Shown here one piece after another: positions 35,597 to 37,674 of a stretch of 43,753 nucleotides of DNA. The DNA comes from an uncultured Bacteroidota bacterium (GTDB lineage: Bacteria; Bacteroidota; Bacteroidia; Flavobacteriales; Flavobacteriaceae), in the NCBI GenBank assembly GCA_937136025.1, contig CAKZOC010000136.1:1-43753 (forward strand). Direction: 5' to 3'. How positions within the stretch are numbered: position 1 is the stretch's first letter; each line of letters starts with the position of its first letter. The position numbers and the translations under genes were made by a program. Below the pieces are notes generated by a model. That model was not told the DNA's origin. It did no database searches and saw only the letters and a program-made list of their open reading frames with translations.

Positions 35597-37123
35597 TCAG
35601 AATCGGAAACTCAAACCGCTGTATACCCCGATGGAGTAGGGCCTGAAACTTCCCTCCGTCTGAGAAAAAGTGTTGAGTTGATACTTAAACATCGGCAAAA
35701 GGTTCAGTTCGAGTCGCGGATTTAGGCGATAGAACACTCCAAATCCCAGATTTGTGCTGAAGTTGAGATCATTCATGTTATTGGATTCACCAACCTCGGT
35801 GGTCGTTCCCGAGGATTCCAGGCTAACGGAATTATCCATAAGAAATAAAGAGCTCATTCCCCCGATAAGATTGAGTCCCCACTTCTTATCGATGAGGGTG
35901 TATTGCATTTCCACAGGGATTTCCAAATACCCGAATTCCTGTACCATCTGACCTTGTCGGGCGGGGCTTGGAGCCGTAATATCCACCGCGTTGGGTTGCT
36001 GGGGTTCCCGCGCACCGCTCGCCGTGCTGTGCACTACCAGGCTTTTTGAATTCTCTGAATAACTAATCGTTCGGATGAGCGAACTCGGTTGGGCAATTGG
36101 AGAAGAGGTGAAGCCTACTTCTTCCGTATTATACCCGTAATCCACCCTGTGAATACCGGAACGAATGCTGAGGCGACGCGAAACCTTGTAGGCCACCTGA
36201 AGGCCGTAACTCATGTTTACAGAACCTGACTTTGAGTTGTTTACAAAGTTTGAGGCAATGGGCGATCCATTACCAAAGGAGTCGAAATAGACCGGAGCCA
36301 GACTTGGGCCTACCATCCATTTGCCTCCTTCATCTGTAGTTTCGGACAGGGCTTCCTGAGCTTCTACAACTTCAAAAATGGATTTTTTATCCTTCTCAGG
36401 AGTATTTGCATTTAAAGTTTCCTCGGTTTTTGGATCTCCCGTATTGGAAGCCAATGCCGCTACATTGGAAGAAGAATCTTCAGGAAGTGGTGCGGCTGCT
36501 ACTTCTTGTGGATTACTGATTCCAGTCTCAGGGGAAGTCCTTTGGCCCTGTGAATTCAAAGGGGATCGGTCAGAGGGCGTTTCAGTGTCTGCAACCTCTG
36601 AAGACCTGATCAATGGAATAGAACCTGGCTTTGCTTCCTGTTTTTCTGTGGGGGGCGCCTGCTCGTCCGAAGCCAGGGATTTGTTGCCCGGAGACTTGAA
36701 TTCCGTGTCGCCGGAAACCTGGGAAGGATTCGAAGAGCTGTAGTTTCCAGATCCTGAATCCGCATCCGACACCGCTGATTTTTCCATATTCTGACCTGCG
36801 ATGGCGTCTCCCTGCCCCGGTTTTTGGAGGGGTTCTTTCAACTGAAGGTTGTCATTTTTAACGGGATTCGCGCCCTCCTGTTTCGTCTCAATTCCGGTAA
36901 CGGAAGGAGTGCTTGTGCCGGTTTCTTCCCATGGATTTACTAACAACAAAACTCCGGTCAGAGCTGCCGCTGCGGCACCTAAACGCCACCAAATCGGGAT
37001 GACCCGTTTGGGTTTTTTCTCGTCCAGGGAAGATCGGATGCGATTCCAAACCCTGGGATCCGGGGTTTCCCCGTGATCTCCCAGTGTCTCCTGGAACAGT
37101 TTTTCCAATTCTTTATTGTCCAT
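35597..37123 (-). CDS. Predicted dual-membrane-spanning anti-sigma factor-like protein: cytoplasmic N-term, IM helix, disordered periplasmic linker, C-terminal OM beta-barrel
   Basis: MDNKELEKLFQETLGDHGETPDPRVWNRIRSSLDEKK; TM VIPIWWRLGAAAAALTGVLLLVNPW; ~200 aa S/E/P/N/T/G-rich linker; C-terminal porin-like domain with amphipathic strands ending SGLSFRF; next to an ECF sigma gene. Confidence 0.75.
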   Translation of the reverse strand: MDNKELEKLFQETLGDHGETPDPRVWNRIRSSLDEKKPKRVIPIWWRLGAAAAALTGVLLLVNPWEETGTSTPSVTGIETKQEGANPVKNDNLQLKEPLQKPGQGDAIAGQNMEKSAVSDADSGSGNYSSSNPSQVSGDTEFKSPGNKSLASDEQAPPTEKQEAKPGSIPLIRSSEVADTETPSDRSPLNSQGQRTSPETGISNPQEVAAAPLPEDSSSNVAALASNTGDPKTEETLNANTPEKDKKSIFEVVEAQEALSETTDEGGKWMVGPSLAPVYFDSFGNGSPIASNFVNNSKSGSVNMSYGLQVAYKVSRRLSIRSGIHRVDYGYNTEEVGFTSSPIAQPSSLIRTISYSENSKSLVVHSTASGAREPQQPNAVDITAPSPARQGQMVQEFGYLEIPVEMQYTLIDKKWGLNLIGGMSSLFLMDNSVSLESSGTTTEVGESNNMNDLNFSTNLGFGVFYRLNPRLELNLLPMFKYQLNTFSQTEGSFRPYSIGVYSGLSFRF

Positions 37124-37134
37124 AACTTATGAGG

Positions 37135-37674
37135 TTAGGCTATCTGTTTTTTTTTTAAAATCTTCTCCTGAAGGATCATCCGGGCACGTGATAAATTCGA
37201 CTTTGAAGTCCCTTCTGAGGTCCCCAGGGCCTCACTAATTTCCTTATGCGAAAAACCATCCAGCACATACATATTGAACGTGAGCCTGTACTTCTGAGGG
37301 AGCTCCTGTACATATTTCAGCAAGAGCGCCAGGGAAATTTCAGGTTCTTCACGACCCATTTCTTCCGCGTGGTCCGGAATATCAGAAAGGAGTTTCAACG
37401 GCTCCTTTTTGCGATACTTCTGCAACACCGTATTTATAGTCACCCGTTTTAACCATCCTTCAAAAGATCCTTTGTACTTGTATTGATGGATCTTTTCATA
37501 AATAGTCATAAAACTATCGTGCAAGTTGTCCTCTGCTTCCGTTTTGTTTCTGGAGTATTTCAGGCAGATTCCATAAAGAACGGGAGCGTGTATCCGGTAC
37601 AGCGTCTCCTGAGCGACCCTGCTGCCTTTGATACATTTCTTTATAAGTTCTTTTTCTGTCAAAATGGAGGACAA
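37135..37674 (-). CDS. ECF-family RNA polymerase sigma factor
   Basis: KCIKGSRVAQETLYRIHAPVLYGICLKYSRNKTEAEDNLHDSFMTIYEKIHQYKYKGSFEGWLKRVTINTVLQKYR (sigma region 2); region 4 LPQKYRLTFNMYVLDGFSHKEISEALGTSEGTSKSNLSRAR. Confidence 0.93.
   Translation of the reverse strand: MSSILTEKELIKKCIKGSRVAQETLYRIHAPVLYGICLKYSRNKTEAEDNLHDSFMTIYEKIHQYKYKGSFEGWLKRVTINTVLQKYRKKEPLKLLSDIPDHAEEMGREEPEISLALLLKYVQELPQKYRLTFNMYVLDGFSHKEISEALGTSEGTSKSNLSRARMILQEKILKKKQIA

What the first reader, a model, noticed from the sequence alone, without database searches (positions are those of the whole stretch)
35597..37674. ECF sigma factor paired with a single protein predicted to span both membranes (Dma-like anti-sigma factor)
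Seen in the sequence: a 508-aa protein directly downstream of an ECF sigma gene (11-nt gap, same strand). It has a ~40-aa charged N-terminus, one hydrophobic helix at ~aa 41-64, a long low-complexity polar linker at ~aa 65-267, and a C-terminal region at ~aa 268-508 rich in alternating amphipathic strands that ends in Phe, as OM beta-barrels do. Established knowledge: a class of dual membrane-spanning anti-sigma factors (Dma) has been described in Bacteroides thetaiotaomicron, linked to outer-membrane vesiculation. Inference: this is a flavobacterial member or analogue. It would sense the outer membrane directly and pass the signal through the periplasm to an ECF sigma without a TonB-type relay or regulated proteolysis.
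Basis: partly seen in the sequence, partly recalled or inferred. Interest (0 to 1): 0.82.

Follow-up and report, generated by a model that had tools for sequence, protein, structure and literature searches.

The report
Flavobacterial two-membrane anti-sigma factor
A marine bacterium (genus Robiginitalea) carries a known type of stress sensor, one protein predicted to reach from the inside of the cell through both membranes and to hold a gene-switching sigma factor in check; the type is already described, but here it comes with a new lipoprotein, a sharply conserved promoter and a probable small RNA.

Summary
In detail: an ECF sigma gene is followed after 11 nt by a 508-aa protein with a short cytoplasmic N-terminus, one TM helix (aa 44-61), a disordered linker (aa 66-244) and a C-terminal barrel ending in Phe. 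AlphaFold2 gives an eight-stranded barrel at high confidence, and Foldseek matches it to OmpA, NspA and OmpW. Both ends are homologous to the anti-sigma at the Bacteroides fragilis locus that fits EcfO-Reo/Dma1 (hhalign P = 4e-12 and 1e-7). It is therefore a member of the published Dma family, not a new class. Sigma binding, localisation, vesiculation and proteolysis-free signalling were not testable. New here: (1) a locus conserved across Flavobacteriaceae (recA, lipoprotein, sigma, Dma) with a near-invariant promoter, GCAACC-N15-CATCT(A/T); the lipoprotein is not NigD. (2) A second such promoter, divergent from recA, in 26 of 31 genomes; in Robiginitalea it precedes a ~130-nt probable small RNA ending in a terminator. 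(3) Outside this genus, Bacteroidaceae encode natural fusions of an ECF sigma directly to TM, linker and barrel (120 protein clusters seen), with no anti-sigma domain; I found no description of them in the open-access papers searched. The identification is firm; the release mechanism is inferred.

The parts
35597..37123 (-). [quoted passage not shown]
36995..37123 (-). aa 1-43, cytoplasmic N-terminal domain (two helices, W26 invariant), candidate sigma-binding domain
   Evidence: helices in AF2 model (modest confidence); homologous to the N-terminus of the B. fragilis Reo/Dma1-type protein, hhalign P=4e-12; recurs next to ECF sigmas with other C-termini
36941..36994 (-). aa 44-61, single transmembrane helix
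36320..36940 (-). aa 62-268, linker; disordered at aa 66-244, conserved short helix at aa 249-262
   Evidence: pLDDT <50 for 66-244; linker length 102-297 aa in 36 homologues
35600..36319 (-). aa 269-508, C-terminal eight-stranded outer-membrane barrel
   Evidence: PF13568; AF2; Foldseek to OmpA/NspA/OmpW
37135..37674 (-). ECF sigma factor (likely start TTG at 37662)
   Evidence: Pfam, NCBIfam, tree with the EcfO-type sigma
37697..38116 (-). 139-aa lipoprotein (lipobox Cys20, acidic residues after it, Ig-like beta-sandwich model), first gene of the operon; not NigD
38146..38172 (-). ECF-type promoter GCAACC-N15-CATCTA driving lipoprotein-sigma-dma
   Evidence: present in nearly all loci inspected; 1 in window vs 0.01 expected
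39277..39303 (+). second promoter of the same type, GCAACC-N15-TATCTT, divergent from recA
39304..39434 (+). candidate sigma-dependent small RNA (~131 nt) ending in an intrinsic terminator, before trhO (ATG at about 39505)
   Evidence: no Rfam family
38205..39212 (-). recA, conserved neighbour between the two promoters (context, not claimed as part of the system)

Best explanation
[quoted passage not shown] The two short N-terminal helices hold the adjacent ECF sigma in the cytoplasm, one helix crosses the inner membrane, a disordered tether of about 200 aa crosses the periplasm, and an OmpA-like barrel sits in the outer membrane. When the outer membrane or barrel assembly is disturbed, the barrel or tether state changes and the sigma is released (step inferred; whether through proteolysis or conformational change is open). 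Free sigma then transcribes from GCAACC-N15-CATCT(A/T) promoters: its own operon (lipoprotein-sigma-dma, giving feedback) and a divergent small transcript beside recA, which in Robiginitalea looks like a terminated, structured small RNA. Shown by computation: architecture, homology, operon, promoter motifs, terminator. Inferred: sigma binding, dual localisation, signal, that this sigma reads these promoters, small-RNA function.
For: Architecture and fold. Homology at both ends to the B. fragilis sigma/anti-sigma locus with divergent NigD (which matches the published EcfO-Reo/Das1-Dma1 arrangement): hhalign P=4e-12 for the N-terminus and 1e-7 for the barrel, mismatched control 0.21. Sigma tree: this sigma, the other N-domain-associated sigmas, the Bacteroides ones and the fusion sigmas fall in one clade (95/93); of 10 own-genome sigma paralogues only the one followed by another N-domain ORF joins it. 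Conserved operon across Flavobacteriaceae. Fixed-spacing promoter; 23 perfect genome hits against 1 for the reversed pattern in 10 genomes; most Bacteroides operons carry GCAGTA-N15-CATTT, the same spacing. Rosetta stone: natural sigma-TM-linker-barrel fusions. Published relatives behave as anti-sigmas: PMC13088901, PMC9308784, PMC13114119, the last two linking Reo to envelope stress.
Against: No physical sigma-Dma interaction was modelled. The N-terminal helices have only modest AF2 confidence (block pLDDT about 57-82), and no sequence match to a solved anti-sigma was found. The NigD partner of the characterised Dma1/Reo locus is absent; its place is taken by an unrelated lipoprotein. Only two intergenic promoter sites were found in the genome, both at this locus, so a wider regulon is not visible at this stringency. 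Formal ECF21 assignment was not run.
Confidence: 0.8

Rival explanations
1. It is a Dma-family anti-sigma but works by classical regulated intramembrane proteolysis: loss of barrel insertion exposes the tether to periplasmic proteases, then the M50 site-2 protease cuts the TM helix and frees the sigma. This is a rival on the release step only.
For: An RseP-type M50 protease is in the genome. A long disordered periplasmic tether is an obvious protease target. The fused sigma-barrel proteins of Bacteroidaceae are hard to activate without a cut, and the sigma/anti-sigma fusion IutY is activated by Prc and RseP (PMC8999054).
Against: M50 proteases are universal (all 14 control genomes), so presence is weak evidence. 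No cleavage motif was identified. The published Dma work read here does not demonstrate proteolysis.
Confidence: 0.45
2. The protein signals without proteolysis: the tether transmits barrel displacement or membrane spacing to the N-terminal domain.
For: One covalent chain from cytoplasm to outer membrane.
Against: The linker is disordered and varies from 102 to 297 aa between species, which fits a loose tether better than a length-tuned rod. A flexible chain transmits little conformational information.
Confidence: 0.2
3. The N-terminal domain is not an inhibitor but a membrane anchor or co-activator for the sigma factor.
For: The sigma-barrel fusions contain no anti-sigma domain between sigma and TM, so tethering alone can be the control.
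Against: Disruption of the homologous proteins in B. thetaiotaomicron and P. vulgatus activates the sigma regulon (PMC13088901, PMC9308784), which indicates inhibition.
Confidence: 0.07
4. It is an ordinary OmpA-like porin or adhesin that happens to lie beside a sigma gene.
For: PF13568 is a common outer-membrane protein family; the genome has five matches.
Against: An inner-membrane TM helix set 43 residues in, after a long charged cytoplasmic stretch, instead of an ordinary signal peptide; strict adjacency to one sigma clade across the class; N-terminal homology to known anti-sigmas; shared operon and promoter.
Confidence: 0.03

Closest known systems
Dma1/Dma2 with Das1/Das2, Bacteroides thetaiotaomicron (PMC13088901; Pardue 2024, pmid 38422018, cited there)
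   Same: Domain order: N-terminal anti-sigma domain, TM helix, disordered tether, C-terminal barrel; adjacent ECF sigma in one operon.
   Different: Different organism group; a lipoprotein with an unrelated Ig-like fold lies upstream in the operon instead of NigD; no vesiculation data.
EcfO-Reo, B. fragilis and Phocaeicola vulgatus (PMC9308784, PMC13114119)
   Same: Homologous at both ends to the B. fragilis locus retrieved here (L135); sigmas in one clade; promoter with the same 15-nt spacing; small lipoprotein gene next to the pair.
   Different: NigD is divergent from the sigma gene there (72 of 80 loci), while here the lipoprotein is first in the same operon; recA is the neighbour here; -35 element GCAACC instead of GCAGTA.
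CnrY, class II anti-sigma of Cupriavidus metallidurans (described in PMC7406223)
   Same: Two short helices within fewer than 50 aa, as predicted for Dma; helix 1 to sigma4 and helix 2 to sigma2 is a plausible binding mode.
   Different: No sequence match to any solved structure detected; CnrY has no outer-membrane barrel. An analogy only.
IutY, sigma/anti-sigma fusion of Pseudomonas putida (PMC8999054)
   Same: Precedent for a sigma fused to a membrane-spanning regulatory part, relevant to the Bacteroidaceae fusions.
   Different: IutY belongs to an iron cell-surface signalling system; the fusions found here carry the outer-membrane barrel on the same chain and lack a recognisable anti-sigma domain.
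sigmaE-dependent small RNAs MicA, RybB of enterobacteria (from general knowledge, not looked up)
   Same: A small RNA made by an envelope-stress ECF sigma is the suggested parallel.
   Different: No sequence relation tested; targets and expression here unknown.

Membership tests
[quoted passage not shown]
   hhalign of aa 1-66 against the B. fragilis-type family, P=4e-12, control 0.21
[quoted passage not shown]
   aa 44-61
[quoted passage not shown]
   pLDDT <50 at 66-244
[quoted passage not shown]
   eight strands, PF13568, Foldseek OmpA/NspA/OmpW; homologous to the B. fragilis barrel
[quoted passage not shown]
   Adjacency met; sigma in one clade with the B. fragilis EcfO-type sigma (95/93); no ECF21 profile was available to assign the group formally
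[quoted passage not shown] spans both membranes in the cell | not testable with these tools
[quoted passage not shown]
   phenotype shown for B. thetaiotaomicron (PMC13088901)
NigD-like lipoproteins (for the 139-aa operon protein) | NigD_N and NigD_C domains | tested here: not met
   no Pfam match; no NigD_N anywhere in the genome; hhalign against NigD rests mainly on the signal peptide; fold search shows only a generic Ig-like sandwich
CnrY-type class II anti-sigma domain | two helices in under 50 aa that wrap sigma2 and sigma4 | tested here: inconclusive
   two helices predicted; no sequence match to a solved structure; binding mode untested

The most novel reading that the evidence does not exclude
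The locus is a complete flavobacterial outer-membrane stress circuit: a barrel-tethered anti-sigma controls a sigma that makes its own lipoprotein operon and a dedicated small RNA (a microprotein in some genera) from a divergent promoter beside recA, an independent counterpart of the sigmaE small-RNA circuit of enterobacteria. In Bacteroidaceae the same barrel has been fused straight to the sigma, giving a transcription factor that itself spans both membranes.
Probability: 0.4. Interest if true: 0.82.

Novelty: new member of a known kind. Interest (0 to 1): 0.58.

Why it matters
It shows that barrel-tethered anti-sigma control, studied in gut Bacteroides, is an ancient and conserved device in marine Flavobacteriaceae, with a promoter signature sharp enough to predict targets across the family. 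If the small RNA and the sigma-barrel fusions hold up, they make two open questions testable: how Bacteroidota sense outer-membrane assembly defects, and whether the release step needs proteolysis. A sigma covalently tied to an outer-membrane barrel seems to leave little other way out.

Tried and rejected
NigD identity of the lipoprotein: rejected. A wide regulon in this genome: the 15 other sites found at up to one mismatch all lie inside ORFs, so only the two sites at this locus stand; an excess of 17 over 8 control hits is not convincing beyond them. trhO as direct target of the second promoter: less likely, because a terminator lies between. Rfam match for the small RNA: none above chance. 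A conserved micro-ORF in the Robiginitalea RNA: rejected, frames and stops differ between species (read). Helix statistics of the RNA: most sequences are only moderately better than shuffles (0 to 36 of 300 as good), and A8 shows mostly one-sided G-U changes with the window row out of register, so structure is suggested, not proven. Sequence search of the N-terminal domain for a solved anti-sigma: nothing. Reading the original Dma1 and EcfO papers: not held.

Full report
1. Observation. The window holds, on the minus strand, a 508-aa ORF at 35597-37123 and an ECF sigma ORF at 37135-37674, 11 nt apart. The sigma matches regions 2 and 4; the large protein matches PF13568 OMP_b-brl_2 at aa 289-474. 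AlphaFold2 with an 83-sequence alignment predicts two short helices (3-13, 23-34), a helix at 44-61 that fits a TM, disorder at 66-244, a helix at 249-262 and eight long strands to residue 507, with pLDDT above 90 in most strand blocks. Foldseek against the PDB returns OmpA, NspA, OmpW, Ail and similar barrels.

2. Conservation. Homologues number at least 1009; names identify the genus as Robiginitalea. Each of the 10 Robiginitalea genomes has one copy, and most genomes of the family have one. In most loci of the family the order is recA, lipoprotein, sigma, dma, followed convergently by plsC and then trpS. Two loci lack the lipoprotein (L027, L029), and some other genera lack recA nearby.

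3. The N-terminal domain. A profile of aa 1-66 finds, across Bacteroidia, proteins of 179 to 649 aa with or without a barrel, and in all but two weak hits (L051, L054) an ECF sigma gene lies directly beside them. The window's own genome has a second such pair without a barrel (contig C86). A domain that keeps its sigma neighbour while its C-terminus changes is what an anti-sigma domain should look like. Its predicted two-helix form resembles class II anti-sigma CnrY as described in PMC7406223, but no sequence relation was found.

4. Membership in Dma/Reo. A scan of named genomes with Bacteroidaceae homologues returned 80 loci, including B. fragilis (L135). There the order is NigD (divergent), sigma, anti-sigma, which fits the published EcfO-Reo and Das1-Dma1-NigD1 systems (PMC13114119, PMC13088901); I matched it by arrangement, not by locus tag. 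NigD-like ORFs lie on the opposite strand in 72 of 80 loci. Profile-profile comparison of the window family with this family gives P=4e-12 for the N-terminus and 1e-7 for the barrel, against 0.21 for a mismatched control (full length). In a tree of 54 sigmas, this sigma, the other N-domain-associated ones, the Bacteroides ones and the fusion sigmas form one clade (95/93); of ten own-genome paralogues only the one with its own N-domain neighbour joins. Some long branches make inner details unsure.

5. Operon and promoter. The loci printed have GCAACC-N15-CATCT(A/T) upstream of the lipoprotein gene, with fixed spacing, in 25 of 26 (in L024 only the GCAACC...CATCT core at the far end of the printed stretch, not checked further); where the lipoprotein is missing the site lies directly before the sigma gene. 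In 10 Robiginitalea genomes the pattern occurs 23 times against once for the reversed pattern. Bacteroides operons carry GCAGTA-N15-CATTT in 49 of 63 loci, none in shuffles: the same geometry with related hexamers. A promoter motif of B. fragilis EcfO has been published (cited in PMC7366714; original not held), so the Bacteroides motif is not claimed as new.

6. Second promoter and small transcript. A one-mismatch site lies at 39277-39303, divergent from recA. Among 31 genomes whose region could be read, 26 have it, including all 9 readable Robiginitalea (my count over; slightly relaxed motif). Downstream, before trhO, nearly every sequence ends in a strong intrinsic terminator. In Robiginitalea the ~130-nt stretch has a conserved TTGCT(A/G)TGAAGAAGAAG segment between arms ACCGCA and TGCGGT; four other genera have a different stem (GGTCA/TGGCC type) round a related segment. 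In several further genera the transcript encodes a ~30-aa peptide of the type MKFFKRTILNNALGVSIAVNINSNCKADGG (read). I call it a candidate small RNA: promoter, terminator and conservation are strong; structure is only suggested and expression is unknown.

7. Lipoprotein. The 139-aa protein has a lipobox Cys followed by acidic residues in most members (61 of 73 with at least two), which from general knowledge fits surface-lipoprotein export in Bacteroidota. AF2 gives a confident Ig-like sandwich; no specific structural relative. It is not NigD.

8. Sigma-barrel fusions. In Bacteroidaceae genomes some ORFs of about 550-590 aa carry sigma2 and sigma4, then one TM helix, a linker and the same type of barrel. 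All 120 listed protein clusters have exactly one TM segment starting at aa 153-211, and 119 end in Trp. Four fusion sigma domains form one clade (100/100) beside the Bacteroides Dma sigmas (94/94). No anti-sigma domain is recognisable between sigma and TM. This supports a functional link between sigma and barrel and is, as far as the searched open-access papers go, undescribed.

9. Mechanism and verdict. Most likely the barrel reports outer-membrane or barrel-assembly state and the sigma is released on damage; P. vulgatus EcfO-Reo is induced by the toxins BcpT and Bd-A, the latter binding BamA (PMC9308784, PMC13114119). Whether release is proteolytic is open; an M50 protease exists but is universal. 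The finding is a real and well-supported new member of a known kind; the promoter, small RNA and fusions are the parts worth following.

Noticed in passing
L094:1492-3135(-), L099:142-1863(+), L100:1489-3249(-), L101:169-1863(+); P0209-P0328: Natural fusions in Bacteroidaceae: ECF sigma factor, one TM helix, linker and Dma-type barrel in one polypeptide, without a recognisable anti-sigma domain; all 120 listed clusters share the layout.
   Followed up: partly
window 39277-39434 (+): Second sigma-type promoter followed by a candidate small RNA with terminator between recA and trhO, conserved in Robiginitalea.
   Followed up: partly
L061, L066, L253, L254, L257, L258 (recA-divergent region): In other genera the same promoter precedes a ~30-aa conserved peptide (MKFFKRTILNNALGVSIAVNINSNCKADGG type).
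   Followed up: no
L003:1477-2770 (own genome, contig C86): Second sigma plus N-domain protein pair in the same genome, with no barrel.
   Followed up: partly
L036, L037, L041, L042, L043: The same N-terminal domain and TM with short non-barrel C-termini, each beside an ECF sigma: a modular anti-sigma domain without a clear match in the Pfam copy used.
   Followed up: partly
L220, L217, L224, L225 (other Robiginitalea): Further perfect promoter sites upstream of a small lipoprotein, cytochrome c-like lipoproteins (two species) and a carboxypeptidase-regulatory-like protein: possible wider regulon.
   Followed up: no
window 37662: Probable true start (TTG) of the sigma gene, four codons after the first TTG.
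   Followed up: no
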